From the NCBI RefSeq assembly GCF_907163085.1, contig NZ_CAJQTX010000002.1:496001-560000 (forward strand): 64,000 bases of DNA, written 5' to 3'. The position numbers and the translations under genes are program-made. A model generated the notes under the pieces. The model was given only the letters and a program-made list of their open reading frames with translations, was not told the DNA's origin and ran no database searches. Shown here one piece after another: positions 16,819 to 45,437 of the stretch (positions are counted from its first letter, which is position 1; the number at the start of each line of letters is the position of its first letter). The stretch is from Candidatus Accumulibacter sp. ACC003. Its GTDB lineage: Bacteria > Pseudomonadota > Gammaproteobacteria > Burkholderiales > Rhodocyclaceae.

Positions 16819-17295
16819 TTGATCAAAGGCCTGCTCAAGGCGATGTCGGCCGAAGGCAGCACCGATGTCGACCTGGCGCTGCCGCACTTCCGGCACGATG
16901 ACCGACAGCTTGCCGGCTGGCGGGCGCTGCTGTTCTCGGTGCAGCGCTTCGAGCGCGCGGTGCTGTTGATCGCCCAGGGCCAGCTACCGCTGGGACGAGC
17001 GACGCTGGCGCGGCTGGCTGAAGTACAGGGTCTCAAGGCGATGGTCGCCAAGCTGCGCGTCGCGCTCGACAAGCTCGGGAAGGCGGGAATCCTCAGCAAG
17101 CCGCTGGCCGGTAACGACGCCATCGAGAACCGCCTGTTTACCGAATACCGCAAGGAGCTGGCGCTGAAAGAGATTGTTTGCAGCAGCGACGCATCGCACG
17201 ATGGGCGAGCAATGCGACAACAGCCCGTTGAGCAAGCCGGGCACGCGAGCTTGATCCAGCGCCGCAGCAAACTACAAAAAAGGACGAAGGAATGA
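16819..17295 (+). CDS. Hypothetical protein coupled to hsdM
   Basis: An open frame runs from about 16759 (after a TGA at 16756) to 17295; TTG at 16819 is the first plausible start, giving 158 aa. The sequence (from IKGLLKAMSAEGSTDVDLAL to RLFTEYRKELALKEI) is helical and charged, and I do not recognise a family. Its TGA overlaps the hsdM ATG (ATGA at 17292-17295), which suggests translational coupling and makes it a candidate restriction-locus accessory gene. The lack of a good start codon leaves open that it is a 5'-truncated gene. Confidence 0.45.
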   Translation: MIKGLLKAMSAEGSTDVDLALPHFRHDDRQLAGWRALLFSVQRFERAVLLIAQGQLPLGRATLARLAEVQGLKAMVAKLRVALDKLGKAGILSKPLAGNDAIENRLFTEYRKELALKEIVCSSDASHDGRAMRQQPVEQAGHASLIQRRSKLQKRTKE

Positions 17296-18830
17296 TCACC
17301 GGCAACATCAAGAGCCAGATCGACCAGATCTGGAACGCCTTCTGGTCGGGTGGTATCTCGAATCCGCTGGAAGTCATCGAGCAGATCACCTTCCTGCTCT
17401 TCCTGCGCCGTCTCGACGACCTGCATACGCTCGAAGAGAACAAGGCGGCGCGGCTCAAGCGCCCGCTGGCGCGGCGCGTCTTCCCCGAAGGCAGCGACGC
17501 CCGTGGACGCTCGTACGAACACCTGCGCTGGTCGCGCTTCAAGCATTTCGCTCCGGCCGAGATGTACACCATCGTCGCCGAGCACGTCTTCCCGTATCTG
17601 CGGACGCTCGGTGGCGACGGCTCGACCTACGCGCAGAACATGAAGGACGCGCGCTTCACGATTCCGACGCCGGCGCTGCTCGTCAAGGTCGTCGACCTGC
17701 TCGACGCGGTACCGATGGACGACCGCGACACCAAGGGCGACCTCTACGAGTACATGCTCGGCAAGATCGCCAGCGCCGGCCAGAACGGCCAGTTCCGCAC
17801 GCCGCGCCACATCATCCGGCTGATGGTCGAGCTGACCGCGCCGCAGCCGGGCGACGTCATCTGCGATCCCGCCTGCGGCACCGCCGGCTTCCTCGTTGCC
17901 GCCGGCGAAGTCCTCCGCGAGCGCCATCCGAACCTCCTGCACGACACCAGGCTGCGCGAGCATTTTCACCACCACATGTTCCACGGCTTCGATTTCGACA
18001 ACACCATGCTGCGCATCGGCAGCATGAACATGCTGCTGCACGGCGTCGAAAATCCCGACATCCGCTACCGTGACTCGCTGGCGCAGGACCACGCCGGCGA
18101 GGAGGAGAAGTACACGCTGGTCCTCGCCAATCCGCCCTTCGCCGGCAGCCTCGACTACGAGAACACGGCCAAGGACCTGCTGCAGATCGTCAAGACCAGG
18201 AAGACCGAACTGCTCTTCCTGGCGCTCTTCCTGCGCCTGCTCAAACCCGGCGGCCGTGCCGCGGTGATCGTCCCCGACGGCGTCCTTTTCGGTTCGAGCA
18301 AGGCGCACAAGGAGCTGCGCCGGATGCTCGTCGAAGAGCAGAAGCTCGACGCCGTCGTCAAGCTGCCGGGCGGCGTCTTCAAGCCCTACGCCGGCGTGTC
18401 GACGGCGATCCTGCTGTTCACCCGTACCGACTCGGGCGGCACCGACAGCGTCTGGTTCTACGACGTCCAGGCCGACGGCTGGAGCCTCGACGACAAGCGC
18501 ACGCCGCTGCTGGCCGAAGACAAGCTTGGCCCGGTGCCGCGCAGCGCGCTTGCCGAAGGCGAGCACGGCAGGAACAACCTGCCCGACGTGTTGGCGCGCT
18601 GGGGGCAGCGCAATGGTGATGAGCGCGTACGTCCGCGCACGGCGCAGAGTTTCTGTGCGGCGAAGGCCGAAATCGCTGCGCAGGGCTACGATCTGTCGCT
18701 GAACCGCTACAAGGAGGTGGTGCACGAGGAGGTCGAGCATCGCGCGCCGAAGGAGATCCTGGCCGAGCTGGCGAAGCTGGAGGAGGAGATTCAGCGGGAG
18801 ATGAAGGAGTTGGAGGGAATGCTGAAGTGA
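17292..18830 (+). CDS. hsdM: Type I restriction-modification methyltransferase subunit
   Basis: A 512-aa N6-adenine methyltransferase. Residues 1-~130 form the HsdM N-terminal domain (IWNAFWSGGISNPLEVIEQI). The catalytic domain has the SAM motif DPACGTAGF (D192) and the target-base motif NPPF (N280). A C-terminal coiled-coil (ELAKLEEEIQREMKELEGML) should pair with HsdS. It protects host DNA by methylating the site specified by HsdS and is required for the restriction complex. GAAGGA precedes the start; the stop overlaps the GTG start of hsdS by 4 bp. Confidence 0.96.
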   Translation: MITGNIKSQIDQIWNAFWSGGISNPLEVIEQITFLLFLRRLDDLHTLEENKAARLKRPLARRVFPEGSDARGRSYEHLRWSRFKHFAPAEMYTIVAEHVFPYLRTLGGDGSTYAQNMKDARFTIPTPALLVKVVDLLDAVPMDDRDTKGDLYEYMLGKIASAGQNGQFRTPRHIIRLMVELTAPQPGDVICDPACGTAGFLVAAGEVLRERHPNLLHDTRLREHFHHHMFHGFDFDNTMLRIGSMNMLLHGVENPDIRYRDSLAQDHAGEEEKYTLVLANPPFAGSLDYENTAKDLLQIVKTRKTELLFLALFLRLLKPGGRAAVIVPDGVLFGSSKAHKELRRMLVEEQKLDAVVKLPGGVFKPYAGVSTAILLFTRTDSGGTDSVWFYDVQADGWSLDDKRTPLLAEDKLGPVPRSALAEGEHGRNNLPDVLARWGQRNGDERVRPRTAQSFCAAKAEIAAQGYDLSLNRYKEVVHEEVEHRAPKEILAELAKLEEEIQREMKELEGMLK

Positions 18831-20041
18831 CATCGGCGAGCCAGAACGGCCACTTGCGCTGGCCAACGGTACAGCTCTCGGATGTCGCTGACCATTGCCT
18901 CGGAAAGATGCTGGATGCCAAGAAGAACAAGGGCCGTCCCCTTCCGTATTTGCGCAATCCAGACGTCCGCTGGCTTGAAATTAATACGACGCAGTTGCGA
19001 ACCATGCCATTTGAGCCGCACGAAGACGACCGTTACAGCTTGCAGAAGGGAGACGTGGTCATTTGCGAAGGCGGGGAAGCGGGGCGGGCAGCGATCTGGG
19101 ACGGCCGGTTGCCGAACGTGAAGTTCCAAAAGGCTATTCATCGAGTACGCCCAGGCCCAAAGCTCGACGCAAAGTATCTGGTGTACTGCATCATGACGGA
19201 CTACCAGAACGGTCAACTCGCCGACTACTACACAGGAGCAACAATCAAACACCTGACCGGGCAAGATATTGCGCGCTACAGGTTTCAGCTGCCACCACTT
19301 CAAGAACAGCGGCGAATTGCGGAGATCCTGGACAAAGCGGACGCGTTGCGGGCCAAGCGCCGCGCCGCTCTCGCCCAACTCGAAGCACTCACCCAATCCA
19401 TCTTCCTCGACATGTTTGGCGACCCTGTCACGAATCCGAAGGGATGGCCGGCGTCGGTGACTCTCGGCGAGGTAGCCGAGATCGTTTCTGGGGTCACCAA
19501 GGGGCGAAACCTACAGGGAAAAGTCTCGCGCATGGTGCCCTACCTTGCCGTTTCAAATGTGCAGGATCGGGCGCTCGACCTTTCTATCACCAAGCGCATT
19601 GAGGCGACGGAAGAGGAGATTCAGCGCTATCAATTGCAAGCGGATGATCTGCTCCTGACCGAAGGCGGTGATCCGGACAAACTTGGACGAGGAACGCTCT
19701 GGAATAACGAACTACCCGAGTGCATCCACCAGAATCACATCTTCAGAGTGAGGCTCACAACTGAGGCGGTGACCCCGCTATTCCTGAATTGGTTGGTAGG
19801 TGGCCAGCGAGGTAAGCGTTACTTTCTTCGTTCGGCGAAACAGACGACGGGTATCGCGTCGATAAACATGACGCAGCTGAAGGGCTTCCCGCTCCTTCTT
19901 CCGCCGCTTGCCTTGCAGCACGAATTCGCCCGCCATGTCGCCATCGCGCAAAAACTGAAAGCCGCTCACCGCGCCTCACTCGCCGAACTCGATGCCCTCT
20001 TCGCCTCCCTCCAGCACCGCGCCTTCAGAGGAGAGTTGTAA
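18827..20041 (+). CDS. hsdS: Type I restriction-modification specificity subunit
   Basis: A 404-aa S subunit starting at GTG. It has two target recognition domains (about residues 8-165 and 205-380), each followed by a conserved helix: [20 protein letters not shown] after the first and [14 protein letters not shown] after the second. It ends [12 protein letters not shown], the usual HsdS C-terminus. TRD sequence decides the DNA target, which cannot be read from sequence alone. TRD1 DNA is visibly more A/T-rich than hsdM, as expected for fast-exchanging specificity genes. Confidence 0.95.
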
Positions 20042-20043
20042 CC

Positions 20044-21102
20044 ATGACCAGCTTCCAACCGAAGTTCACGATCTCGAATTCGATCACCGCAGCGCTCACC
20101 GCCATCGAGCGGGCGCGCGGCTTTCTGGAAGCGGCGACGCTTTCAGAGGCGTGGGTTGAGCGCATGAGCCAGCAGGCGCTGCTGCTGGAGGCGCATCACA
20201 GCACGCACATCGAGGGCACCTTGCTCACGCTGGGCGAGGCCGAGCGATTGTGGGGGGGCGAGACGGTAGCGGGTGCCAATGTTGACGACGTGCGCGAGCT
20301 GCTCAACTACCGCGATGCCTTCGAACTGGTGTCGGAGTATCTCGGTGGTGGCGAACCCATCACCGAAGGGCTGCTCCGCGAGATCCACAAGCGACTGGTA
20401 AGCGGCGTGCGGGGCCACGCCGCGCAGCCCGGGTGCTATCGGACTATCCAGAACTACATCGCCAACAGCCGCACGCGTGCGGTGATCTATACGCCGCCAT
20501 CGCCCGAGCAGGTGGCGCCCTTGATGCGCGAGCTGATCGAGTGGCTGCGCGGCGACACGGACATCCATCCGGTGCTGGTCGCCGGCATTGCGCAGTTCCA
20601 GCTGGTGCATATCCATCCCTTCGTCGACGGCAACGGCCGGACCTCGCGTTTGCTCTCGACCCTTTGTCTTTACCGCGCGGGTTACGATTTCAAGCGCTTG
20701 TTTACCCTCAGCGAGTTCTTCGACCGCGACCGAAGCGCGTTCTATGCCGCGCTGCAAGGCGTGCGCGAGCGGGATATGAATTTGACTGACTGGCTCGACT
20801 ACTTCGTGCACGGCCTCATGCAGCAACTGGAAGAGGTCAAGAGTCGCGGCGTATCGGTGATCCGGGCCGACGTGCAGGCCAGGGAGCATGCTCTTGGGCT
20901 GCGCCAGGCAGCGGTGCTCGCAGCGATCCATCAGGCACAGATGTTCTCCCTGGGGGAACTCGAACCGCTGTTTCCCAACGTGAGTCGCCGTTCGCTGCAG
21001 CGCGACCTCAAGCTGTTGCTCGACAAGGGGTTGATCCGCGAGCTGGGCGCTGCCAGCGTGACTGACCCGAATCGTTCCTACGGGCCAGCGCCGGATCGCT
21101 AG
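20044..21102 (+). CDS. Fic family AMP-transferase with class II inhibitory helix and C-terminal wHTH
   Basis: A 352-aa Fic protein. The active-site loop [12 protein letters not shown] (191-202) is complete, and an N-terminal inhibitory motif (S/T)xxxE(G/N) is present as STHIEG (S53-G58), defining a class II Fic. The N-terminal part fits a Fic/DOC N-domain and the last ~80 residues look like a winged helix ([20 protein letters not shown]). It starts 3 bp after hsdS and is followed by the repeat array and hsdR, so it is embedded in the restriction operon. Known chemistry: AMP transfer to a protein hydroxyl. Target unknown. A decayed relative of its 3' part lies at 26350-26640. Confidence 0.93.
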
Positions 21103-21126
21103 CCGCGCACGGCCGGGCGTCGCAAG

Positions 21127-21180
21127 CTGTGACAAACTGTGACAGGGAGCTATGACAAGCTGTGACACCGAGCTGTGACA
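21127..21180. repeat. 23-bp tandem repeat with paired CTGTGACA boxes, upstream of hsdR
   Basis: Five CTGTGACA-type octamers start at 21127, 21137, 21150 (CTATGACA), 21160 and 21173. Spacing alternates 10 and 13 bp, giving a 23-bp unit present about 2.3 times. The array lies in the 103-bp fic-hsdR gap and ends 25 bp before the hsdR ATG. It looks like a multi-site operator. A related but decayed array is at about 26632-26660, and one TTGTGACA lies at 16754 upstream of the restriction operon. Confidence 0.7.
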
Positions 21181-21205
21181 AGTCCGCAAGCCTGGCTGCA
21201 GGCGC

Positions 21206-24676
<3,471 letters not shown>

Positions 24677-32708: not shown

Positions 32709-33811
32709 TCCGCCTCGGCTCTGTCATTGCCGAATTCGAAGCGGACTTCATGACGCAATTTCGCCACCGCCTGAGCTTCGATCAGCTTCGGGCACTCTCG
32801 GCGATGCGCGATTGCCGCGGCCCGGCCAGCCCGATGATGCAGCTCCAGTGCGAAGGCTGCGATCAGCAAAAACTCGTTCCGCATTCCTGCGGCCATCGCC
32901 TTTGCCCGCACTGCCAGCACCACGAGAGCCAGCAATGGCTGGAACGTCAGATAGAGCGCCTCGTCCCGGCCGACTACTTTCTGCTGACCTTCACGCTGCC
33001 GGCCGAATTGCGCGGGCTCGCTGCGGCGCACGCCGACGTCGTCTTCGATGGCTTGATGCGCTGTGCCTGGGAAACGGTGCACCGCTTCAGTCAGAACGAC
33101 CGGCAGTTGCAGGGCACGCCCGGCGCCATCGCGGTCCTGCACACGCACTCGCGTCGGCTCGACTTCCACCCGCATGTCCATCTCGTCGTCCCCGCGGCAG
33201 CGATCGATGCCGCGAAGCAGCGCTGGCGACGCAAGCGGCGCGGCAAGAACGGCACCTACCTGTTCAACGAGAAGGCGATGGCCAAGGTCTTCCGGGCCAA
33301 AATGCTGGCGGCGATCGAGGCGGCCGGCATTTGCCTGCCGGCGTCCTATCCGCGGGAATGGGTAGCGCACTGCAAATCGGTGGGCAGCGGCGAGAAGGCC
33401 CTGATCTACCTCGGTCGTTACCTCTACCGCGGCGTCATCCGTGAACAGGACATCCTCGCTTGTAAGGATGGGCGGGTGAGCTTCCGCTACCGCAACGCAC
33501 AAACCGGCAAGTCGGAAAAGCGCTCGCTAGCCGGCGCCGATTTCCTCTGGCTGATCCTCCAGCACGTGCTACCCAAGGGCTTTCGCCGCGCCCGCAATTT
33601 CGGCTTCCTGCACGCCAACTGCAAGCGCCTGATCAGTTTGCTGCACCGCTTGCTGAAGTTCGATCCCAGCCGCTTCACGCCGCCGCGCAAGGAGCGGCCA
33701 GCGATGCTTTGCCCGTGCTGTGGCTCCGTGATGTCAATTGTCCGGACGCGTATTCGATCAACATCGCCCGCCTTCGTCGCTGCTCCACCGCTCGTCGCGA
33801 TCGCTGCCTGA
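32705..33811 (+). CDS. IS91-family transposase (HUH, Y1-type)
   Basis: A 368-aa rolling-circle transposase. Start at ATG 32705 (MIRLGSVIAEFEADF), overlapping the recombinase frame by 4 bp. N-terminal zinc-binding domain: CEGC ... CGHRLCPHC. HUH motif HPHVH (155-159). Catalytic Tyr region LIYLGRYLYRGVI. C-terminal CPCC pair. It looks intact and could drive the element. Confidence 0.93.
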   Translation: MIRLGSVIAEFEADFMTQFRHRLSFDQLRALSAMRDCRGPASPMMQLQCEGCDQQKLVPHSCGHRLCPHCQHHESQQWLERQIERLVPADYFLLTFTLPAELRGLAAAHADVVFDGLMRCAWETVHRFSQNDRQLQGTPGAIAVLHTHSRRLDFHPHVHLVVPAAAIDAAKQRWRRKRRGKNGTYLFNEKAMAKVFRAKMLAAIEAAGICLPASYPREWVAHCKSVGSGEKALIYLGRYLYRGVIREQDILACKDGRVSFRYRNAQTGKSEKRSLAGADFLWLILQHVLPKGFRRARNFGFLHANCKRLISLLHRLLKFDPSRFTPPRKERPAMLCPCCGSVMSIVRTRIRSTSPAFVAAPPLVAIAA

Positions 33812-34164: not shown

Positions 34165-34282
34165 CGGGCGTGTGCCCAGGCATCGCGGAGAGTGCAAGAC
34201 GGTGGGAACGTTGCGCAACTACCTATGAGCAATACTGGTCGGCCTATCAACGACCGGAGCACACCATTCGTTTGCATGATCG

Positions 34283-34292
34283 CGGCGCGTAT
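34283..34292. repeat. Target site duplication of ISAs1, left copy
   Basis: CGGCGCGTAT directly left of the left inverted repeat; the identical 10 bp follow the right inverted repeat at 35577-35586. Ten bp is within the usual range for the ISAs1 family. Confidence 0.92.
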
Positions 34293-35576
34293 CAGGGCCT
34301 CCGCACTCGGATAGCATAGTGCTTGTTGTCATACTCGATCAGCGGAAAATCGTTAACATTCATGGGCTTATGACAACCACTTGTAAACCCTGTTGAAATC
34401 AGGTCTACTCTCGTCTTTTGGACGAACGAAATGACTGTGACGACGGGAGTGAGCCTGATGTGCTGCTTGAGGGAAGTGGACGACCCGCGCAGACCCAGCA
34501 ACGGGACGCTGCATGACTTCCAGGAGATTTTGGTGATTGCCATGGCAGGGGTACTCTCGGATTGTGACACCATCGAAGACATCGCCTACTGGGGGCGCCG
34601 GAAAGAAAAATGGCTGCGTGAATTCCTGGTGCTCAAGAACGGGGTTCCCTCCACGGAGACGTTTCTGCGGGTGTTCCGAGCGCTTGACCCGAAGCAATTT
34701 GAGGTCGCGTTTCGCCGCTGGGTGGCCGGGGTGGTCGGCGCCTTGCGAGGCAGCGTCGCGTTCGATGGCAAGACGGTGCGAGGTTCCGGCAGTGGTGGCG
34801 AAACCGCGATTCACATGGTCAGCGCCTTCGCTACGGAATTGGGTATTGTCCTCGGCCAGGAAAAGGTCGCCAGCAAGAGTAATGAGATCACCGCCATCCC
34901 GGAACTCCTCAAGGCACTGTATATCAATGGGTTGCTGGTCACCATCGACGCCATGGGCTGCCAGAAAACTATTGCTCGGCAGATCACGGATCAAGGCGGT
35001 GACTACCTGCTGGCGGTCAAAGGCAACCAGCCGACGTTGCTGGAAGCCATCGAGACCGAGTTCATCGACCAGTATCAATCCGAGGCCGTTGATCGCCACC
35101 GTCAGGCCCGCAAGTCCCATGGTCGAATCGTCGGACAGATCGCCTCGGTCTTGCCTGCGCAAGGACTCGTTGATCTGGCCGATTGGCCGAAGTGCCAGAC
35201 GATCGGCCTGGTCGACTCCCTGCGCAAGGTTGGCGACAAGGAATCGAACTTCGAGCGACGCTACTACATCAGTTCTCGTGCCTTGACCGCCGAAGAGCTG
35301 GCGGCCGCGGTGCGAGGCCATTGGGGCGTAGAAAACCGCCTTCACTGGGTGCTCGACGTCAGCTTTCGTGAAGATGCCAGCACTGTACGCAAGGACAACG
35401 CCCCACAGAACCTCTCCCTCTTGAAGAAAATCGTTCTCAACCTGATTCGTCTGGATACGACCGACAAGACTAAAGCCAGCTTACGCTTGAAGCGCAAAGG
35501 AGCTGCTTGGGATGACGATGTCCGGATGACGATGCTGGGCCTCACACCGCTATGACAGCCGAGTGCGGAGGCCCTG
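34293..35576 (+). mobile_element. ISAs1-family insertion sequence, complete
   Basis: A 1284-bp element with perfect 18-bp terminal inverted repeats (CAGGGCCTCCGCACTCGG at 34293-34310 and its complement at 35559-35576), one intact transposase, and a perfect 10-bp target duplication. The identical ends and duplication suggest a recent insertion. Confidence 0.95.
34431..35555 (+). CDS. ISAs1-family DDE transposase
   Basis: A 374-aa transposase of the ISAs1 (H-repeat-like) family. DDE residues are seen in VAFDGKTVRGSG, VTIDAMGCQ and GVENRLHWVLDVSFRED. N-terminal domain LREVDDPRRPSNGTLHDFQE is typical. Complete and unbroken. A second copy at 44042-45130 is nearly identical over most of its length but has lost the Glu region. 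Confidence 0.95.
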   Translation: MTVTTGVSLMCCLREVDDPRRPSNGTLHDFQEILVIAMAGVLSDCDTIEDIAYWGRRKEKWLREFLVLKNGVPSTETFLRVFRALDPKQFEVAFRRWVAGVVGALRGSVAFDGKTVRGSGSGGETAIHMVSAFATELGIVLGQEKVASKSNEITAIPELLKALYINGLLVTIDAMGCQKTIARQITDQGGDYLLAVKGNQPTLLEAIETEFIDQYQSEAVDRHRQARKSHGRIVGQIASVLPAQGLVDLADWPKCQTIGLVDSLRKVGDKESNFERRYYISSRALTAEELAAAVRGHWGVENRLHWVLDVSFREDASTVRKDNAPQNLSLLKKIVLNLIRLDTTDKTKASLRLKRKGAAWDDDVRMTMLGLTPL

Positions 35577-35586
35577 CGGCGCGTAT
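35577..35586. repeat. Target site duplication of ISAs1, right copy
   Basis: CGGCGCGTAT, identical to 34283-34292, directly after the right inverted repeat. Confidence 0.92.
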
Positions 35587-35819
35587 CGATGATGGAGACT
35601 GCGAGGCCACGCGTTACGGCAACACGATTCTCGCGGAAGTCGATAGGCGTGACGGAGTTCTTTCCTGCTGGTTTGATATTCGTGGATATGGCGCTATCCC
35701 GACACGGCGCCGCTGTTCCTGCGCTGCGCACCTTGCCGCAGGTGTTTCGGAATCACCAGGGTAATTTGCGCGAACGCATTGGCCTCCGACACGCCCTGGC
35801 GTCCTCGCAAGCGACCACC

Positions 35820-36737
35820 TCAGTCTGTTTTGAGATGGGCTCTTCTCGCCTTGTGATCGGCGAGCTTGCGGCCTTCGCCAGCCTCTTCAAGCCACAGGAG
35901 CGTGTCCACATACGAGACAAATCGGCTGAGGTAGTCCGGCGACAAGTCCCGCAGTGCGGCGAGAGATCGTATGACCAGCGCCTGCGGGTTCAGTGGTCCC
36001 GGTGCTTCAGGGCCATCACTGATGACCCGCGCTACCAGTCGGTCTGAATCAAGCTTTACCAGTAGCTCTCGGAAATCTCGCACCGAACTCGATTCGATTG
36101 CCCGACCGCCGCGGCAAGCTTCACCGAAAACCGCGAACTGCTGGGTGTCTTCAGCCGCCAAAATGCCCGCGCGAGCTTTTGATTTTGCCAGACCCGACGC
36201 CTGCAGCGCGGCGTCTTCGCGTTGTCGCAAGACGTCGTTGAGAGAGTCCGCCTCCGCATGCGCGGCCAACGAGCCCTGGTTAATCTCGTTGGTCAATACG
36301 GCCAGCGCGCTGACTTCCTGCCCGTCGTGTTTCGCTTCTCGCCCTCCGTTGAGCTTGGCTGCCAGGCGGTTAACTGCCGTGAAGTCACCATCATCGAACA
36401 AGGATCGAATACGATCGGCGGCTTCGGGAAACTGGGTAGAAACCCTCTCAACGAGACTTGCAGCGCAATGTTCTGCCTTTGCATAGTCAGCCTGATAATT
36501 GGCTAAAGCAATGCGTATCTTCCGTTCCAGAATCACGCGTACCGATATTTTTCTTTCGAGCGCCCTCGTGGCCATCGATTCAATAAGCTGGAACCGAAGC
36601 GGATCCAGCTTACGAGCACTGCTTTTCGCCAGACAGGAAACAAGCAGTCCGAGGTCGGCGGTGTCAATTGCCGCCAGGCGAGACGACAGCGAAGACTCCT
36701 CCTTGCTGGCAATAGCAGAGGGAAGCGTATCAGTCAT
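35820..36737 (-). CDS. DUF2894 family protein
   Basis: A 305-aa cytosolic protein, last gene of a four-gene operon. Family marks: LDPLRFQLIESMATRAL near residue 50 and the C-terminal SLAALRDLSPDYLSRFVSYV followed by DTLLWLEEA. The middle is helical and Ala-rich. No enzyme motif is seen. It overlaps the MotB-like gene by 8 bp, so it is co-translated with the channel pair; it may act as a cytosolic partner or effector. Function unknown. Confidence 0.85.
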   Translation of the reverse strand: MTDTLPSAIASKEESSLSSRLAAIDTADLGLLVSCLAKSSARKLDPLRFQLIESMATRALERKISVRVILERKIRIALANYQADYAKAEHCAASLVERVSTQFPEAADRIRSLFDDGDFTAVNRLAAKLNGGREAKHDGQEVSALAVLTNEINQGSLAAHAEADSLNDVLRQREDAALQASGLAKSKARAGILAAEDTQQFAVFGEACRGGRAIESSSVRDFRELLVKLDSDRLVARVISDGPEAPGPLNPQALVIRSLAALRDLSPDYLSRFVSYVDTLLWLEEAGEGRKLADHKARRAHLKTD

Positions 36738-37386
36738 CTGACGATATCAGCGCCTCTTTCTGATTACTGGCCCGCGGCACTGGTGCGATCTCCACGCGTC
36801 GATTCAGCGATCGCCCCTTCGCGTCGTGATTGGAAAATACCGGTTGCTGTGAGCCAAACGCCGCCGCGAATACCATCGCTGCCGGCATGCCATCTTCGAT
36901 CAACGCCCGGGTCACGGTCAGCGCACGTTCCGCCGACAACTGCCAATTATCGTCGTAACGACGATTTCCCTCCTGAATCGGTAGGTCGTCGGTAAAACCA
37001 CTCACCATCAACAGCTGATCCCTTTGGTCAAGATAAACCTTGAGTGGAGCAACGAGCGTTCGCAGTAATTCACGCCCTGCCGGCTGCAATTGATCTGAAT
37101 TCAATGAGAACAACACACTACCGCTGATCGCGATGCGCCCGTCACGCAGCGTCACGCGTCCCGTGGCCAGTGGATCGGCCAGCGCTTCTTCAAGAGCAAT
37201 CCGTCGCCGCTCCTCGACCTGACGCTTTTCGACTTCGTGTTCGAGTGACTGCGCAAGCTCGAGTTGGAAGCCAAGCGCCCACACCAGAAGCAAGACAAAG
37301 ACACCGACCAGCGCAGACATCAAGTCGCCAAAAATCGCCCAGATCGGGGTGTCCTGAGAGAAGCCATCTTCCAGCTCTTCCATCAA
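36730..37386 (-). CDS. MotB/OmpA-like peptidoglycan-binding stator-type protein
   Basis: A 218-aa protein. One TM helix at residues ~15-38 carries Asp21 (IFGDLMSALVGVFVLLLVWA), in the place of the proton-binding Asp of MotB. A short coiled coil (~42-70) leads to an OmpA-like domain (~85-205) with LFSLNSDQLQPAGRELL, VSGFTDDLPI, LSAERALTVTRALIEDG and SLNRRVEI. It overlaps the DUF802 gene by 4 bp. Likely the peptidoglycan-anchored, ion-binding partner of the MotA/ExbB-like DUF802 protein. Confidence 0.9.
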   Translation of the reverse strand: MMEELEDGFSQDTPIWAIFGDLMSALVGVFVLLLVWALGFQLELAQSLEHEVEKRQVEERRRIALEEALADPLATGRVTLRDGRIAISGSVLFSLNSDQLQPAGRELLRTLVAPLKVYLDQRDQLLMVSGFTDDLPIQEGNRRYDDNWQLSAERALTVTRALIEDGMPAAMVFAAAFGSQQPVFSNHDAKGRSLNRRVEIAPVPRASNQKEALISSDD

Positions 37387-39428
37387 AGCACCTCTTTGGC
37401 TGCGGGCTCGGGAGCTCTTTGCACCCGCTGGCCAAGCTGGCGTAATTCGTCAAAAATGCTTTTCTGCGACAGCATGCTGTGATCGATTATTTCCCGGGCC
37501 TGGGCGACGTAATACGCCAATTGCTCATCACTTCTCTTGCTCGATTTAGCCAGCGATTTCTCGATGCGATTGAGGCTTTCTACCAGCTTGCCATTGGCTT
37601 CGTTGAAAAGCGTAACGGCGAGCCCGAATGCGTCGCCGTGACTCGATGTTTCGATCGTGCTGACGGCAAAATCATCGGCGATCGTGGACAGCCTCGACAC
37701 CTCTGACGCCACATGACCTGCAAATTGCGAACCGACACCTTCAAGCGTGCTGACTGAAGATCTGACCAGTGACTCAATCGCTTCTCGCTGCCCGCTGGTC
37801 GCGTGTTGCAAGGAAACCAAAACGGTATTGAGCTCTGTCATGATCCGTTGTCGCTCTTCAAGCAGGGTGTTATCTCGTACAATACTGTTCGACATTTCAC
37901 GGCGAAGCTGATCAATGACTTCGGCGGCAGCCCGTGGTGTCTCCGAGGCCGTCTGGATAAGGCTGGCAATCGGTTCTTCGAGCTCTTTCGCCAGACTCGC
38001 CAATTGTGAAGCTACTGTCGACTCGAGGCCGGCGAGGCTATCGAGCGCGGCCTGGCCGCGACGTTCTTCATCATTTCTGAGTGCCTGCAACTCGCTCCGC
38101 AGGGTCGATGTCAGCTCACTCATCCGCTGGCCATGCCCCTGCAGCCACGACGCTTCGCCTTCTATCCTGGCCTGGATCAAAGCCTCGGAAGACTGCAACA
38201 GAGAGCGCATTTCATTGAGCGTCGCACTGAAGTTTGCGCGGGCATTATCTGACATTTCACTGGCAGTTTTTTCGAGCGTATCGCATAACGCCTGGCTTTG
38301 CATGCGCGAGCGCTCAGCCGCCTGCTCGAAGGACTCGGTCCACAGTTCGAATCGCTCCCTATCGAGCAACTGCTGACGTTCCAGCCAGCTTGATGAACTC
38401 TGCTCGAATGATTCCAGTAGCGAGCCGGTCACCCCTTCAAGTTGCTCCCGAACAGTGGCGCTCAGTTGCCGATGAGTCGTCCGGGTTTCATTGCCAATAT
38501 CGGTCACTACGCTTTCGAGCAGCGGCTTGATGCTTTCAGCAAGCTGTCTTCCGCTCTCTATCGCCTGCCGACCACTCTCGGTAACGCTTTCCGCGAGCGA
38601 CTGACGCAGCGAACTGGCGAGCTCGGAATAGGTGCCTTGTACCGACAGATGGAAGCGCTCCTGATTGGCCAGCAACTTATCGCCAAGATTATCGCCCATT
38701 CGCTCCATCGCACTCGCCAACGCGTGCAGTCTTTCTGCCACCTCGGGAAGCGCGTTCGCTTGCAGCTGCATGGCTTTTAAAGTCTGTTGCCGAAGGTGGG
38801 CCAAAGAAAACTCACGAAATATCGTGCTGATCTTGCCATCCAGCTGTCGCGTCGCGAACATTCTGTCGCGTCGGCTTAGAGTGGCAATCAGTCCCAGCAT
38901 CGCCGACGCCGCGACGCCGGCAACGGAGGTGCCAAAGGCCAGCCCCAGCCCCTTGATTGGCGCAGCCAGGCCGGCGCGAATGGCCAGTAACTCGGTCGTT
39001 CCTTCCAGCGCGGCTACGGCGCCATGCAGTGTATCGACCATGCCAAGAAACGTTCCAAACAAACCCAGCATGACCAACAAGCCCACCAGGTAGGGTGTAA
39101 TCACGGGCGCGGGCAAGCCCACCCGTTCTCCTTCAATACGTAGCCGAACCGCGTTTTGCAGCGACGGGTGCAGCTTGCCCAGCCATTGCTCAAGAAAATC
39201 AGGCGCAGCCATCGGCGCGGTTCCCGACAATCCGGCGAGCGCATTGGTGAGCGTCGACGTGGCTTGCCGAAAGCGTACGATCTCCATAAAGCCGACGAAA
39301 TAGACGCCGCCAATTAGCGCCGTCACGGCAAGCCCCAGCACGTTCGAGCCAGTGAAAACCAGGCCCATCCAGGCAATCGCCGCCGCTCCCAGGAGGAATG
39401 CTGTCGCGAAAAATAATCTGCTCATCAA
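37383..39428 (-). CDS. DUF802 family MotA/ExbB-like channel protein with long coiled-coil tail
   Basis: A 681-aa protein. TM helices at about 5-24, 31-52, 113-132 and 162-184. The TM3-TM4 unit (VMLGLFGTFLGMVDTL ... GLGLAFGTSVAGVAASAMLG) resembles the MotA/TolQ/ExbB pore core. Residues ~190-670 form a very long, Ser/Glu/Gln-rich coiled-coil region on the cytosolic side. This layout, channel core plus long tail with a MotB-like partner next to it, is like ZorA of Zorya defence systems, but family membership is DUF802. Overlaps both neighbours by 4 bp. Confidence 0.88.
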   Translation of the reverse strand: MMSRLFFATAFLLGAAAIAWMGLVFTGSNVLGLAVTALIGGVYFVGFMEIVRFRQATSTLTNALAGLSGTAPMAAPDFLEQWLGKLHPSLQNAVRLRIEGERVGLPAPVITPYLVGLLVMLGLFGTFLGMVDTLHGAVAALEGTTELLAIRAGLAAPIKGLGLAFGTSVAGVAASAMLGLIATLSRRDRMFATRQLDGKISTIFREFSLAHLRQQTLKAMQLQANALPEVAERLHALASAMERMGDNLGDKLLANQERFHLSVQGTYSELASSLRQSLAESVTESGRQAIESGRQLAESIKPLLESVVTDIGNETRTTHRQLSATVREQLEGVTGSLLESFEQSSSSWLERQQLLDRERFELWTESFEQAAERSRMQSQALCDTLEKTASEMSDNARANFSATLNEMRSLLQSSEALIQARIEGEASWLQGHGQRMSELTSTLRSELQALRNDEERRGQAALDSLAGLESTVASQLASLAKELEEPIASLIQTASETPRAAAEVIDQLRREMSNSIVRDNTLLEERQRIMTELNTVLVSLQHATSGQREAIESLVRSSVSTLEGVGSQFAGHVASEVSRLSTIADDFAVSTIETSSHGDAFGLAVTLFNEANGKLVESLNRIEKSLAKSSKRSDEQLAYYVAQAREIIDHSMLSQKSIFDELRQLGQRVQRAPEPAAKEVL

Positions 39429-40213
39429 GCTCTTTCTACCTCTTCCTTAAGTGCCTCTATCAGTCCCAGCACCGGCTGTATGCGAACTTCAAGCTCGGCC
39501 AGCAGCAAACCCTGCATTTCCCCGGTAAATTGTTCAAGCCACCCGCCTGCTTGACTCCACAAACGCCAATCGCCTTCACCGTGCTCACCATCTTGGCTCG
39601 CAACCACCTGCTGGTGCTGCAGATACAGGTACTGAAAACGTCTTTCAAGCAGGCGTGGTATTTCGGCGAACAATTTCTGCGTGGGCGCAGAAAGCGCCTC
39701 GTCGAGCGCGGCATCGAGGACGACCAACTGAGCAAGCCTCGATGAACGACTTGAAACTGCTGCCCGGGTACTGGCCCTAAGCTTGCCGAGTTTGACGGCG
39801 ATTTCTTTTTGGCGACTCACATAGAATAGCTGGTAGCGCCCATATTTCGTTAGCTCTGCCGCGGATATAGCCGCCGTTACCAGCGGCAGGCTTGGCGGCG
39901 CCACACCCACACCCGCAGCCGGGACAAAACTATCTATTATCGATTGAACTATCGTTGTGCGAACCCGGATAAACTCGTCTACCAGCGACTCCGTGGAAAC
40001 CACAGTGGCAGTCTTCGCGCAGGGTTTTGATGCCGTCGCCGCAAGACCGACATGTACTCTTGACAGAGCTATCGAGCCAGACAGATCGATTAGTCGGCCA
40101 AGGCGTTCAGCAAAGTGCTTATGCGAAACCTCGACGCCCGTAACGGTGAGATCGGATAAAAAACGAATCAATCTGGAACTGGCCAGAGCTGTTGGCGGCG
40201 GCACTTGAGTCAT
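39425..40213 (-). CDS. DUF3348 family protein
   Basis: A 262-aa cytosolic, helical protein, first gene of the operon. The N-terminal SSRLIRFLSDLTV and HFAERLGRLIDLSGSIALS blocks are the DUF3348 signature. Start chosen at ATG 40213 (MTQVPPPTALASSRL); a GTG at 40231 is possible and neither has a strong ribosome site. Overlaps DUF802 by 4 bp. Function unknown; its fixed linkage with DUF802, OmpA and DUF2894 in betaproteobacteria points to a shared complex. Confidence 0.85.
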   Translation of the reverse strand: MTQVPPPTALASSRLIRFLSDLTVTGVEVSHKHFAERLGRLIDLSGSIALSRVHVGLAATASKPCAKTATVVSTESLVDEFIRVRTTIVQSIIDSFVPAAGVGVAPPSLPLVTAAISAAELTKYGRYQLFYVSRQKEIAVKLGKLRASTRAAVSSRSSRLAQLVVLDAALDEALSAPTQKLFAEIPRLLERRFQYLYLQHQQVVASQDGEHGEGDWRLWSQAGGWLEQFTGEMQGLLLAELEVRIQPVLGLIEALKEEVERA

Positions 40214-40699
40214 GCGAATATTGGCAAGCACATCGCTTCAGGAAATATGGCTCAATAAAATCAAGGATCTCGAAAACCAGCGTCAGGGCTGTGTTTCCCC
40301 ATTCTCATGCCAAGGATTTCGTACTCGGACAGCATGGGTTATGATTATCCGCAACCCGAGGATTGCGCGCAACTCAACGACGGCTTCACGCGCATCTTCT
40401 CGGCGCGCCTCATATCATCATGGCCGAGCGGCCTGCGTCAGACCGAGATGGGGTGCGCAAGAGCGTTCAAGAAACACGTCAAATACCCTCATAAACAATA
40501 TATTTTTGCGTATGTTTTTCGAGCGCGGAGACCCTGCTAACCTAAGCTGCTGGCCCCGATTTGCCTGGCTTTTTCGTAGTAACGGTAGAGTCGAGATGTG
40601 GCGCGATAGCCGTAGGTTCGGCTTGTCTGTTTCCGTCCCTTTCGTCTGACGGTGCCCAAGTAGCCTGGCCATAGCTTCGTTTCCACATCCCGCTCATCG

Positions 40700-40733
40700 A
40701 ACCGGACGTGCAGTTCTCCCGCATCCGGCTCTC
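40700..40733 (-). ncRNA. Group II intron domain V
   Basis: On the minus strand GAGCCGGATGCGG ... TGCACGTCCGGTTC folds into the ~34-nt domain V hairpin, the catalytic heart of the ribozyme, with the GAGCCGG / CCGGTTC outer stem. It lies just after the maturase gene as expected. Confidence 0.88.
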
Positions 40734-40743
40734 GGACAAGACA

Positions 40744-42137
40744 TCATGCTTTCGCCCACGGAAGGTCATGGGTTCAGGCTGGCAAACGGATCAGCCCCAC
40801 CTGTTGGTAGAGGTATTGATCGGGGTAGCGCGTCGCCCCATTGCCGCAAACCTTGTGCTTCTTGCACAACCACCGGCGGAGCCGCTGCTTGACATGGGTG
40901 TTGATCGCCCGATAGGCCGGGCTGACAGAGGGCCGAGGCAGAAGTAATTCACCCAGCCAGTCAGTTTGCGATTCAGACGTCCCACGACAAACTCGGCATC
41001 CAGGAGGGTTCGACAACGGTCAGTTTCCTGGTTGACGCTTTCCACCATGCGTTTGATGCTCTTCTGCGAGGGCCGAGTGCCAATGTAGGCGCGCCCGGTC
41101 GTCTGGTTGTAGCACCGCCCGAAGGTGTATCCCAGGAAGTCAAACCGCTCTTGCGGTAGTCGATACAGGTGTGTCTTGTCGTCGTTCACTGTCAGCTTCA
41201 GTGTCGCCATCATGCCTCGCATCGCGTCCATGGCATTCTCTGCCCGGCCTTTGCAGCAGATGACGAAGTCGTCCGCATAATTGACGATTTGCGCCGACCA
41301 GCGACGCGCATACCCCAACGTCTTCCATCCGAGGATGAAACGCCGCATGTACAGATTCGACAGCAGCGGTGAAATTCGGGCCCCTTGCGGGGTGCCGCGC
41401 CCGGTGTCCCGGTTGGACGTGGTCCGTTGCCGGTGACCGTGTCCATCGTCTTCTTCCACAGGCGCTTCCAGCCATTGCTTGATGAGGTGCAGAACGTGCC
41501 GATCGACAATCCGACGGGCGACGCTCTTCATCAGCTCAAGGTGCGGAATGCTATCGAAATAGCCGGATAGATCCGCGTCTATCACTGGCCGGTGTCCCGT
41601 GTTCAATAGACGATGAACCGCTTGTACCGCATCCTGCGCCTCGCGCTCTGCCCGGTAGGCGTACTGCTCCGGCTGCAGATCGGCTTCAAAGATAGGTTCC
41701 AGCACGAGCATGGCCGCCGTTTGTACGACTCGGTCGGTGATCGTCGGTATCCCCAAGGGGCGCAGTTTGCCGTTCGGCTTGGGAATCCAGACCCGTTTGA
41801 CCGCTTCCGGTCGGTAGTCTTTCTTCTTCAGCCGTTCCGCCAGTTTCCCAAGCCAGCGTTCTTCTCCATAGGCTTCGATGTCTTCAAAACGCACTCCGTC
41901 CGCCCCGGCTGCTCCCTTGTTGGCTTTGCAGCTTCGGTAGGCATAGTCGAGTACGTCTGGTCGATGGACCTTGTCGTACAGGAGGTAGAACCGGTACCCG
42001 GGTTCTTCCTTCGCTTTGGCATGTAACGCCATCTGCAGTTTCTGAACGCTTATTGGAGTTTGCAGGTTGCCCAATCTCCTGTCCCTTTCCGCTTCTTGCG
42101 TTGGTCTTGAACTGAGGCCCCTTTCCTCCATCGGCAT
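40744..42137 (-). pseudogene. Group II intron reverse transcriptase/maturase, frameshifted
   Basis: Reverse transcriptase with NYADDFVICC catalytic motif, GRGTPQGARISPLLSNLY, DADLSGYFDSIPH and the maturase-type C-terminus. The main frame (start 42137, ATG) leaves the family sequence after GWVNYFCLGPLS at about 40937; the true continuation (SPAYRAINTHVKQRLRRWLC to VGLIRLPA) is in another frame. After that an in-frame TGA (about 40777) precedes the usual end DLPWAKA (stop 40744). Two defects suggest an inactive protein. Confidence 0.85.
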
Positions 42138-42578
42138 TACCCGACTTCAGCGGTACTACGGGCCTCTCCGCCACCCCATCTCGCCCGGCCTGTCCCTCGC
42201 GGGCGTCCGGTTGGTCTTGCGCTTGACCACGTGATGGGGCTTCCCGTGTTGCGTCTGCCTTCCTCTTCCACACATGCCGTCACCAATACCCCGGCGGAAC
42301 CACAGACTGCGTTTCGCTCGCATTCGCCTGCGACGACGGCCTTCCCCGTATTAACGGCGGGTCGGCTTCCGCATCACCCTTTTCGAGGCCTGCTCAGTGT
42401 TCAATCAAATTACGGCCTGCATGTTCGCCAAGTTCCTTAAAGAACCCTCTATACCGGAGGCTTCAGCCGCTTCGTTACCTCCACGACTGCTCCAGTTGCT
42501 ACCGGCCGGAGCGAAAGTTGCCGGGCGGGATTCGCACCCGCTGGAAAACAGCGCCTTGGCACGGCGCACAAGAAATTA

Positions 42579-42625
42579 CTGATTTAATCGGGAACCTAGC
42601 TTGCCGTGAAAATCGATTAAATCAG
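42579..42625 (-). terminator. Hairpin at the intron 5' insertion point
   Basis: A perfect 12-bp inverted repeat (CTGATTTAATCG / CGATTAAATCAG) with a 23-nt loop. On the minus strand it is followed by TAATTTCTT and then the intron. It may terminate the ATP-grasp transcript coming from 42765 and is a likely intron target. 42626-42764 otherwise shows nothing. Confidence 0.6.
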
Positions 42626-42764
42626 AGCTGCCGTAGCATATAAATGTAAGACTACAGGCAAATTCAACAAGCGGGCGCTTACTGTCGTTTTTCAATCGGC
42701 ATGCCGACGTTAAAACTGACCAGCCAGTCGGTGCGCGGCACTATTTTTAATAGGCGATTTTTCA

Positions 42765-43916
42765 CTACCACAACCAGTGATGCTTCCTAATTCCCATGCG
42801 ATGATTTATCGGTGACCGGAGATGGTTTTTAGGTGGCGAATACATGAGGCCGTCGAGGCCTCGACTTCGCAAAAGCCAAATAAAGTCCTCGTCAAAAAAG
42901 CTAGTTCTGTATGCGTGTTGCGATAGGTCAATGTCCCCGAATGCATTTACTTCGAGTACTTTTGGGCCTTCCGAACAGAGAGCAATGTCCCATCCCGGAC
43001 AAATGAATCCCGGAAACCCTTTCTGTGCGTCAGTTACCAGATCGACAACTTCATTCCAATTCGGAATTTTGAAGCCCACAATTTCAGCCTTTGTTGACGG
43101 ATGTATTGGAATCTCGGTTTGGTGCAACCCAACTCCGGAAATGGCACGAATGACTTTACCCGTCTTGACATCCACGGCAGCGAGCATATTACCGCTAGCC
43201 CCATGCTCAAAATTGTCCGAGTCCCGCAGCCCAGCATTTATCTTAAAAATGACTTTTGTAATTTTAACCTCATTCTTAGCAAAGAATGTATGAATACGAA
43301 GGCCCGATATTTTATTTGACTTGGTTAACGCGAAAATGTCTTGATGTGGCGCGAGTGATTCTTGGAATATCCACCCGAGCGTACGACCTTCGTCAAGTGA
43401 TGAACAAAAATCGTTAAGAGATTCTTTACGGCCGTTGCCGAATATTACGTTGTGTCCGTCAAACCCGGTGATGAGCAAGTTACCTCTACCATACGACCCG
43501 AACGACCTTTTGATATATAGAGGAAAGCTGCCAGGGTCCGTGAAAAATGCAGAAACATCTACTAACGTTTGCAATTGAGGAATTGATGATGGCCGCATTG
43601 AACGATATACGGCTTTTATCTTGGGCACAGGAATCTTGAGGCCCGACATAAGTGCGTACATTGTAATTTTGTCTAGGCTCAGGAATCGTGAGTAGTCATC
43701 AACAAGGATGTCTTCAATTGCTGCTTGCGTTCTCTGCCCACCGAATGACGCCTTCTCTGGCCATGAAAGGTCGTTCATATACAACCGAAAGTCAATGTAT
43801 TCAGACAAGCCTAGTTTTGTTCGAGAAACGCGCAGCCGCGCTGCCTCAATGAGCAGTGAAGATAGCGACCGACTTGACAACGACGCGGCTTGTTTATATG
43901 TATCGATTAGTGTCAT
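42765..43916 (-). CDS. ATP-grasp protein, sugar-transfer-associated type
   Basis: A 383-aa protein of the ATP-grasp fold, closest to the sugar-transfer-associated ATP-grasp family. Seen: SFPLYIKRSFGSYGRGNLLI (nucleotide-binding lysine and glycine loop), GWIFQESLAPHQDI, GLRIHTFF, and the metal-binding end CPGWDIALCSEGPKVLEVNA. The family forms carboxylate-amine (peptide-like) bonds, often in polysaccharide or capsule loci, but no such partner genes are near. The DNA is clearly A/T-rich compared with everything around, a sign of transfer from a low-GC source. 43917-44041 holds no gene. Confidence 0.8.
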   Translation of the reverse strand: MTLIDTYKQAASLSSRSLSSLLIEAARLRVSRTKLGLSEYIDFRLYMNDLSWPEKASFGGQRTQAAIEDILVDDYSRFLSLDKITMYALMSGLKIPVPKIKAVYRSMRPSSIPQLQTLVDVSAFFTDPGSFPLYIKRSFGSYGRGNLLITGFDGHNVIFGNGRKESLNDFCSSLDEGRTLGWIFQESLAPHQDIFALTKSNKISGLRIHTFFAKNEVKITKVIFKINAGLRDSDNFEHGASGNMLAAVDVKTGKVIRAISGVGLHQTEIPIHPSTKAEIVGFKIPNWNEVVDLVTDAQKGFPGFICPGWDIALCSEGPKVLEVNAFGDIDLSQHAYRTSFFDEDFIWLLRSRGLDGLMYSPPKNHLRSPINHRMGIRKHHWLW

Positions 43917-44041
43917 GTTGTTGGCTCGTCACGGGAGTATAGCGAAGGAGACTCTGAATTGTGCAAAAGACATGAAGTGCTAATAATTTAATAGGGGAGC
44001 CGTTGATCGATTAACCAGCGATACGTTATTTACCCAGAGAT

Positions 44042-45130
44042 TCAGAATCTCGTTTCACATAACGCTATGAGGCCCAGCCTGTTTATCCGGACATCGCCGT
44101 CTCGAGCAGCTTTTCTGCGCTTCAAGCGCAAGCTGGCTTTGGTCTTGTCGGTCGTATCCCGACGAATCAGATCTCCACAGTTCGTCAGTCCATACTGAAC
44201 TTCTTTTCTGTGTGCCTGCGGCACACTTTCCACGCCGCAATGGCCTCGCACCGCGGCCACCAGTTCTTCGGCGGTCAACGCACGAGAACTGATGTAGTAG
44301 CGCCGCTCGAAGTTCGATTCCTTGTCGCCGACCTTGCGCAGGGGGTCGACCAGGCCGATCGTCTGGCACTTCGGCCAATCGGCCAGATCAACGAGTCCTT
44401 GCGCAGGCAAGACCGAGGCGATTTGTCCGACGATTCGACCATGGGAGTTGCGGGCCTGGCGGTGGCGATCAACGGCCTCGGATTGATACTGGTCAATGAA
44501 CTCGGTCTCGATGGCTTCCAGCAAGGTCGGCTGCTTGCCTTTGACCGCCAGTAGGTAGTCGCCGCCTTGATCCGTGATCTGCCGGGCAATAGTCTTTTGG
44601 CACCCCATGGCGTCGATGGTGACCAGCAACCCCTTGATATACAGTGCCTTGAGCAGTTCCGGGATGGCGGTGATCTCATTACTCTTGCTGGCGAGCTTTT
44701 CCTGGCCGAGGACAATAGCCAATTCCGTAGCGAAGGCGCTGACCATGTGAATCGCGGTTTCACCGCCACTGCCGGAAACTCGCACCGCCTTGCCATCGAA
44801 CGCGACGCTGCCTCCCAAGGCGCCGACCACCCCGGCCACCCAGCGGCGAAACGCGACCTCAACTTGCTTCGGGTCCAGCGCTCGGAAGACCCGCAGAAAC
44901 GTCTTCTTGGAGGGAATGCCATTCTTGAGCACCAGGAACTTACGCAGCCATGTTTCCTTCCGGCGCCCCCAATAGGCGATGTCTTCGATGGTGTCACAAT
45001 CCGAGAGTGCCCCTGCCATGGCAATCACCAAAATCTCCTGAAAGTCATGTAGCGTCCCGTTGCTGGGTCTGCGCGCGTCGTTCACTTCCCTCAAGCAGCA
45101 CATCAGGCTCACACTCGTCGTCACAGTCAT
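44042..45130 (-). pseudogene. ISAs1-family transposase, decayed second copy
   Basis: Reads as the same transposase as at 34431 (opening MTVTTSVSLMCCLREVNDAR) with many identical stretches, including AFDGKAVRVSG and VTIDAMGCQ. After VRGHCGVE about 45 residues holding the catalytic Glu helix are replaced or deleted, and the frame rejoins at DTTDKTKASLRLKR. Neither inverted repeat of the complete copy is found at the ends; similarity begins only at the CTCGTCTTTTGGA just upstream of the start. Inactive. Opposite in direction to the intact copy 9 kb away. Confidence 0.88.
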
Positions 45131-45144
45131 TTCGGTGATCCAAA

Positions 45145-45437
45145 AGACGAGAAAAGTGGCAGCGGCAATGATTTAGGCATCGATTTGCAACCGGGTATTA
45201 TGCCCAATGCTGGTATGCGACGCAATGAGACGATCGAATCGAGGCGAAGCGCCTGGCAAGGAGTTCCGGCGAGCGTTCGCATATCGCATGACGCATGCAA
45301 GGCGCCGCGCGCAAGGCCAGATCCCGGCCGTGCCTGGCAGCCGCTGCCGACCAGTGCAGACCGCCGGAGCGACCGACGCCGAAGGCCAGGAAGACAGCGA
45401 GACTGACACGCGCAGGTCTGGCAGCGCCGACGTCCGC
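45145..45437. other. Intergenic, no gene seen
   Basis: About 0.3 kb between the decayed ISAs1 copy and the recD stop. Open frames here look like shadows; no terminator with a T tract or RNA gene was found. Confidence 0.5.

What the first reader, a model, noticed from the sequence alone, without database searches (positions are those of the whole stretch)
35820..40213. Four-gene DUF3348-DUF802-MotB/OmpA-DUF2894 operon resembling an ion-driven motor
Seen: four overlapping genes (4, 4 and 8 bp). One encodes a four-TM MotA/ExbB-like protein with a ~480-residue coiled-coil tail, the next a one-TM MotB-like protein with Asp21 in its helix and an OmpA domain, flanked by two cytosolic families of unknown function. 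Known: MotA/MotB, ExbB/D, and ZorA/ZorB of Zorya phage defence share this channel-plus-anchor layout, and ZorA also has a long tail. Inference: this is a proton-driven signalling or force unit with its own two cytosolic partners, possibly defensive, and distinct from classic Zorya because no ZorC/D/E-like gene is present. It lies among mobile elements.
Basis: partly seen in the sequence, partly recalled or inferred. Interest (0 to 1): 0.85.

Follow-up and report, generated by a model that had tools for sequence, protein, structure and literature searches.

The report
A Zorya type III phage-defence operon
These four genes are a known bacterial anti-phage machine, Zorya type III, in a Candidatus Accumulibacter genome; the unusual part is that the same machine is a single-copy gene set in every examined genome of some other bacterial genera rather than a come-and-go defence island.

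Summary
In detail: four intact, overlapping minus-strand genes at 35820-40213 encode DUF3348, a MotA/ExbB-like protein with a long tail, a MotB/OmpA protein and DUF2894. The reading "distinct from Zorya" is wrong: PADLOC models name all four as Zorya type III (ZorA3 1e-225, ZorB3 2e-108, ZorF3 5e-42, ZorG3 1e-62), described in 2021 with phage protection in E. coli (PMC8565338) and defined without ZorC/D/E. Found here: the pore aspartate is in 138 of 138 aligned ZorB rows; the gene order is complete in 20 of 20 loci of the own genus and family and 74 of 80 named-genome loci, the other six cut by contig ends; the ZorA tail tip is far better conserved than the mid-tail; both partner proteins are predicted all-helical with no PDB fold match. 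The system is patchy in the own genus (17 of 28; more than one origin) but present in every genome of three other genera (35/35, 20/20, 20/20), mostly at one place in the two checked. Neighbours show no clear excess of defence genes.

The parts
39425..40213 (-). DUF3348 gene (zorG3 in PADLOC-DB; called ZorF in the 2021 and 2025 papers), first gene of the operon
   Evidence: Pfam PF11828 1.1e-62; PADLOC ZorG3 1.2e-62; model mean pLDDT 78.6, all helices
37383..39428 (-). zorA3, MotA/ExbB-like membrane part plus long cytosolic tail (681 aa from TTG; ATG is the next codon)
   Evidence: PADLOC ZorA3 1.4e-225; hydropathy; tail conservation profile
36730..37386 (-). zorB3, one membrane helix with the pore aspartate (Asp21 from TTG, Asp20 from ATG) plus OmpA-like domain
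   Evidence: PADLOC ZorB3 2e-108; PF00691 6.5e-17; Asp in 138 of 138 aligned rows; the family profile matches chain 8VVN_B, the solved type I ZorB, 7.1e-07 over positions 7-199
35820..36737 (-). DUF2894 gene (zorF3 in PADLOC-DB; called ZorG in the 2021 and 2025 papers), last gene of the operon
   Evidence: Pfam PF11445 9.8e-38; PADLOC ZorF3 5e-42; model mean pLDDT 65.9, all helices
34270..35599 (+). IS element (DDE_Tnp_1 with DDE_Tnp_1_assoc transposase, 34431-35555), downstream of the operon; outer limits uncertain
   Evidence: Pfam; inverted repeats at 34270-34319 / 35550-35599, 76%
44042..45152 (-). second, diverged copy of the same IS in inverted orientation; with the first copy it brackets the operon, the intron and an ATP-grasp gene
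   Evidence: 926 bases at 94% plus 122 bases at 83%; ORF 44042-45130
40585..42543 (-). group II intron with its reverse transcriptase (40791-42137), upstream of the operon
   Evidence: Rfam RF02003 106.1 bits and RF00029 43.5 bits; RVT_1 5.7e-37
17292..24676 (+). type I restriction-modification set hsdM-hsdS-Fic-hsdR, another defence system about 11 kb away (context, not part of the operon)
   Evidence: PADLOC MTase_I 7.3e-193, Specificity_I 5.1e-110, SoFic 2.1e-63, REase_I 2.1e-160

Best explanation
It is a complete Zorya type III system. Shown here by sequence: a ZorA-like membrane protein with a long tail, a ZorB-like protein with the conserved pore aspartate and an OmpA-type domain, and the two type III partners, kept together as one unit. 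Inferred from the solved types I and II: five ZorA surround two ZorB, the OmpA domains engage peptidoglycan when a phage disturbs the envelope, and ion flow turns ZorA and its tail. My inference: the well-conserved tip of the tail is where the two all-helical partners dock, so tail movement changes their state. No nuclease-like fold was seen in either, so the end effect is more likely recruitment or release of a partner, or a harmful ion leak, than cutting of DNA by the operon itself. That last step is the weakest part.
For: All four proteins match type III PADLOC models; ZorA and ZorB match them far better than type I or II models. The NCBIfam model NF033915 (antiphage ZorA_2) does not reach its cut-off with this protein (45.3 against 100 bits). 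The operon is complete in 20 of 20 and 74 of 80 loci, the other 6 cut by contig ends. DUF3348 and DUF2894 occur in the same 17 of 28 genomes of the genus. The four proteins diverge together (distance correlations 0.91 to 0.96 over 125 loci; relatedness of the hosts alone would also raise these). The pore Asp is in 138 of 138 aligned rows. ZorA residues 621-660 have a mean commonest-residue share of 0.79 to 0.80, against 0.16 to 0.20 at 421-480, over 132 rows. A cloned type III operon from Stenotrophomonas nitritireducens reduced plating of at least one of five phages in E. coli (PMC8565338, passages). 5:2 structures, and the need for ion flow, tail and peptidoglycan binding in types I and II: PMC11890865 (abstract, passages, first part of the first results section, discussion).
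Against: Presence in every examined genome of three genera, and no clear excess of defence genes beside it, are not what is usual for a defence system. No structure of the complex could be predicted. Docking of DUF3348 and DUF2894 on the tail tip rests on conservation alone. The DUF2894 model is of low confidence, and both families keep a few acidic residues (D48 and D281 in DUF2894, D167 and E240 in DUF3348, numbered from the first residue of the matched stretch), so a catalytic role is not excluded. In Burkholderia cenocepacia only the first one or two genes of the Zorya I and Zorya III operons changed during phage infection, direction not stated in the section, and Zorya III was not among the systems those authors called transcriptionally active (PMC12584637, section 6 read).
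Confidence: 0.85

Rival explanations
1. The four-gene set is first of all a standing envelope machine (for example a sensor or force unit on the cell wall) in the lineages that keep it; protection from phages is one outcome, or a side effect of expression in E. coli.
For: Present in 35/35, 20/20 and 20/20 genomes of three genera, one copy each. In the two checked it sits at the same chromosomal place in most species: with the reference locus counted, upstream flank collinear in 20 of 20 and downstream in 18 of 20 loci of one genus; 16 of 20 and 19 of 20 in the other. In the first of these genera a type I restriction enzyme model hits 8 of 35, with partial matches, and ZorA_2 is over cut-off in 0 of 35. 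The 25 of 110 Pfam families listed for neighbouring proteins are mostly ordinary metabolism and transport. No ZorB relative at E 1e-20 in 50,697 phage records.
Against: Patchy elsewhere: 17/28 of the own genus, 17/300 of the order, 8/369 of the class. More than one origin within one genus. Published phage protection in E. coli. A defence system can itself become part of a core genome.
Confidence: 0.15
2. A new motor system unrelated to Zorya.
For: ZorA3 matches the type I and II ZorA models only weakly (1.1e-10 and 0.0069), and no ZorC/D/E-like match was listed for the 14 window proteins scanned against PADLOC.
Against: All four genes match dedicated Zorya III models with E-values down to 1e-225, and type III is published.
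Confidence: 0.02
3. A stranded, non-functional copy: carried in by transposition and cut off from its promoter by the intron and IS elements.
For: The near end of a group II intron lies about 370 bases upstream of the first gene, and IS copies lie on both sides.
Against: All four frames are open and full length. Six other genomes of the genus carry all four genes of the same clade. The pore Asp and the invariant ZorA columns are kept.
Confidence: 0.06

Closest known systems
Zorya type III (ZorA3-ZorB3 with DUF3348 and DUF2894 proteins; PADLOC 2021, PMC8565338)
   Same: All four families, with the two DUF genes flanking ZorA-ZorB
   Different: No difference in make-up was found. PADLOC-DB and the papers give the letters F and G the other way round.
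Zorya types I and II (ZorAB with ZorCD or ZorE; PMC11890865)
   Same: ZorA/ZorB core, pore aspartate, OmpA-type domain, long ZorA tail
   Different: No ZorC, ZorD or ZorE match among the 14 window proteins scanned; two predicted all-helical partners instead; ZorA matched stretches of 603 to 1156 aa in 132 rows, while the tails of the two solved cases end at residues 696 and 378
MotA/MotB flagellar stator, ExbB/ExbD, TolQ/TolR
   Same: Channel plus one-helix anchor layout; OmpA-type domain like MotB
   Different: Two linked cytosolic partners and a long tail; listed MotB models under their cut-offs

Membership tests
Zorya type III | ZorA3: MotA/ExbB-like protein with a long tail | tested here: met
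   PADLOC ZorA3 1.4e-225; about four membrane segments ending near residue 185, the rest tail
Zorya type III | ZorB3: one membrane helix with pore Asp, OmpA-like domain | tested here: met
   PADLOC ZorB3 2e-108; Asp in 138 of 138 aligned rows
Zorya type III | DUF3348 and DUF2894 proteins flanking zorAB | tested here: met
   1.1e-62 and 9.8e-38; order checked
Zorya type III | Protects against phages | not testable with these tools
   Published for another copy only (PMC8565338)
Zorya type III | 5:2 assembly of ZorA and ZorB | not testable with these tools
   No complex prediction offered; solved for types I and II
Zorya type I or II | ZorC and ZorD, or ZorE, beside zorAB | tested here: not met
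   No such match listed for the four operon proteins or ten further window proteins; for two of the ten only the best 25 families are listed, and not every window ORF was scanned
Zorya type I or II | ZorA over the NF033915 cut-off (100 bits) | tested here: not met
   45.3 bits
Flagellar stator MotAB | MotA and MotB family models over their cut-offs | tested here: not met
   No Pfam match for the ZorA-like protein; the MotB NCBIfam models listed (best 25 of 38 families) are under their cut-offs

The most novel reading that the evidence does not exclude
In some lineages Zorya type III is not an accessory defence island but a fixed, vertically inherited envelope-linked motor with a standing role, using two all-helical partners docked on the tail tip in place of any nuclease; its anti-phage activity would be one use of a general cell-wall sensing machine.
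Probability: 0.2. Interest if true: 0.7.

Novelty: already known. Interest (0 to 1): 0.36.

Why it matters
The system type is known, so the window itself adds a member. What could matter is the pattern around it. In what I read, the working end of type III is unexplained, and no nuclease-like fold was seen here. It is in every examined genome of three genera; in one of them, where I tested it, a restriction enzyme model is patchy. That makes it a good test of whether a defence system can become part of the core genome, or whether its main job is something else.

Tried and rejected
Rejected: a new motor system (dedicated Zorya III models match all four genes).

Defence-island test: one search listed 160 proteins, up to two nearest ORFs on each side of 43 loci. 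I gave 128 of them, from 38 loci, to the scan, leaving out large proteins and near-duplicate loci to meet the size limit; the window's own neighbours and the Burkholderiaceae and f15 loci were not in it. Control: 128 of 167 ORFs from 12 regions set at round coordinates in 7 genomes of the own family, while the neighbour set also held Gammaproteobacteria. At E 1e-30, 6 PADLOC families with one member each (at most 6 proteins, probably 3) against 4 (at most 4, probably 2). ORFs were picked by length and codon-position GC, not by a gene caller. The numbers are too small to exclude a weak excess.

Searches in print: DUF802 (1 paper), DUF3348/DUF2894/two Pfam accessions (2 papers), Zorya with ZorF or ZorG (2), Zorya with type III (41, 40 listed), Zorya structure terms (4; 5), Zorya with Xanthomonas and PADLOC (4), Zorya with Burkholderia (11), zorya_type_iii (0). 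Passages or sections of five papers that mention Zorya were seen; the rest only as listings. In these I saw no statement that type III is core in whole genera. One paper reports Zorya homologues in Xylella fastidiosa as incomplete and poorly conserved (PMC9148166, passages), which argues against presence throughout that wider family; family f15 as a whole had 98 of 247.

Mistake corrected: in the tree I left out L072 (titled Candidatus Accumulibacter UBA704) as a presumed duplicate; it is not one. Rerun with it, it falls with Dechloromonas, and the window's nearest rows and the sizes of its starred sets are unchanged. Left out of the single-origin test as well: 8 rows (six with long end branches, two others: L076, L091) and 15 near-relatives.

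Full report
What is there. The four genes of the finding are real, intact and on the minus strand. Pfam confirms DUF3348, the OmpA domain and DUF2894. The genes overlap by 4, 4 and 8 bases with TTG starts, or 1, 1 and 8 with the ATG codons next to them.

What it is. PADLOC-DB models for Zorya type III match all four: ZorA3 1.4e-225, ZorB3 2e-108, ZorF3 5e-42 (DUF2894), ZorG3 1.2e-62 (DUF3348). The type was defined in 2021 from 6,401 instances, and one operon reduced plating of at least one of five phages in E. coli (PMC8565338, passages). The papers call DUF3348 ZorF and DUF2894 ZorG; PADLOC-DB has them the other way round.

Host and surroundings. The window lies in a 5.39 Mb genome. About 11 kb away is a complete type I restriction set. 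Two inverted IS copies bracket the operon, a group II intron and an ATP-grasp gene. This looks like a composite transposon, but no ends or target repeats were checked.

The unit. The order DUF3348-ZorA-ZorB-DUF2894 was found in 20 of 20 loci of the genus and family and in 74 of 80 loci from named genomes; the other 6 start at a contig end. In two further genera 39 of 40 fetched loci are complete, and in one (L146) no ZorB was found. DUF3348 and DUF2894 occur in the same 17 of 28 genomes of the genus. Distances of the four proteins correlate at 0.91 to 0.96 over 125 loci.

Key residues. The pore aspartate is present in 138 of 138 aligned ZorB sequences. The ZorB family profile matches the solved type I ZorB (8VVN_B) over positions 7-199 of 214 (7.1e-07). 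In ZorA the membrane stretch 161-180 has a mean commonest-residue share of 0.90. The mid-tail 421-480 has 0.16 to 0.20 and is filled in only about 0.3 of rows. The tip 621-660 has 0.79 to 0.80 (132 rows). A strict tip pattern, which I wrote from the first alignment, is met by 123 of 139; of the 16 others, 14 keep a close variant and 2 are cut short (L091, L146). A tail of variable length with a constant tip suggests a docking site; this is inference.

The two partners. AlphaFold models are all-helical: DUF3348 mean pLDDT 78.6, DUF2894 65.9 with long low-confidence stretches. No PDB match at E 0.001 by Foldseek. Residues conserved in at least 85% of 125 sequences are mostly Leu, Arg, Pro, Gly, Ala and aromatic, with no His; a few acidic ones are kept (D48, D281; D167, E240). 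I see no nuclease-like set in this, but that is a judgement by eye.

Distribution (one genome per species). DUF3348: 17 of 28 genomes of the own genus, 17 of 300 in the order over cut-off, 8 of 369 in the class, 98 of 247 in family f15. DUF2894: 27 of 150 in the own family over cut-off. In three genera of f15 DUF3348 is in every genome: 35 of 35, 20 of 20, 20 of 20, one copy each; the other three genes were checked only in the 40 loci fetched from two of them. In the first genus, ZorA_2 is over its cut-off in 0 of 35, and a type I restriction enzyme model gives hits, partial in length, in 8 of 35. For the two genera I fetched 20 loci each (of 35 and of 20 genomes). Relative to one reference, itself counted, upstream DNA is collinear in 20 of 20 and downstream in 18 of 20 of the first; in the second, 16 of 20 and 19 of 20. 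So there it is largely a fixed, vertically inherited locus. [quoted passage not shown]

Movement. The tree of ZorA N-terminus plus ZorB (102 rows; 103 rows) holds the window with six other genomes of its genus (support 100) in a set of 26 rows (support 100) whose other members are 18 gammaproteobacterial rows and one row labelled Desulfobacteraceae. Nine other rows of the genus form their own clade among Betaproteobacteria. A single origin for the 16 is rejected (p-AU 1e-61, reduced set of 79 rows, quick tree). The 9 f15 rows with Luteibacter nest among Burkholderiaceae. So the unit has moved between distant groups and later become fixed in some. A ZorB relative (E 1e-30) was found on 27 of 72,556 plasmid records; the 25 listed are large replicons of 366 kb or more, from Burkholderiales genera and one Azoarcus; the rest of the operon was not checked there. 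None at E 1e-20 in 50,697 phage records.

Neighbours. Proteins beside 38 loci show no clear excess of defence models over a control, and the 25 of 110 Pfam families listed are varied and mostly ordinary, with one IS66 transposase. The window's own restriction set is therefore not shown to be part of a trend.

How it works. By analogy with types I and II (PMC11890865), peptidoglycan engagement by ZorB opens the channel, and ion flow turns ZorA and its tail. For type III the next step is unknown in what I read; the 2021 paper proposes that the two DUF proteins regulate ZorAB. I propose that the tail tip acts through DUF3348 and DUF2894. Whether this ends in an ion leak, a recruited host factor or something else is open.

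Verdict. A textbook Zorya type III operon in a new host genome: ordinary as a finding, but with a distribution worth following up.

Noticed in passing
34270-45152: Two inverted copies of one IS (94% over 926 bases), the second diverged, bracket the Zorya operon, a group II intron and an ATP-grasp gene: a possible composite transposon.
   Followed up: partly
17292-24676: Complete type I restriction-modification set with a Fic protein between hsdS and hsdR.
   Followed up: partly
31774-33811: An ORF that looks like a tyrosine recombinase by eye (not scanned), followed by an IS91-type (Y2) transposase.
   Followed up: no
   Followed up: no
   Followed up: no
Corynebacterium glutamicum control genome: A DUF2894 match over the Pfam cut-off in an actinobacterium, while DUF3348 matches none of the 14 control genomes; a stand-alone use of the domain or a false match.
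   Followed up: no
L072 10001-10636: Record titled Candidatus Accumulibacter UBA704 carries a Dechloromonas-like Zorya III: a third origin in the genus or a mislabelled bin.
   Followed up: partly
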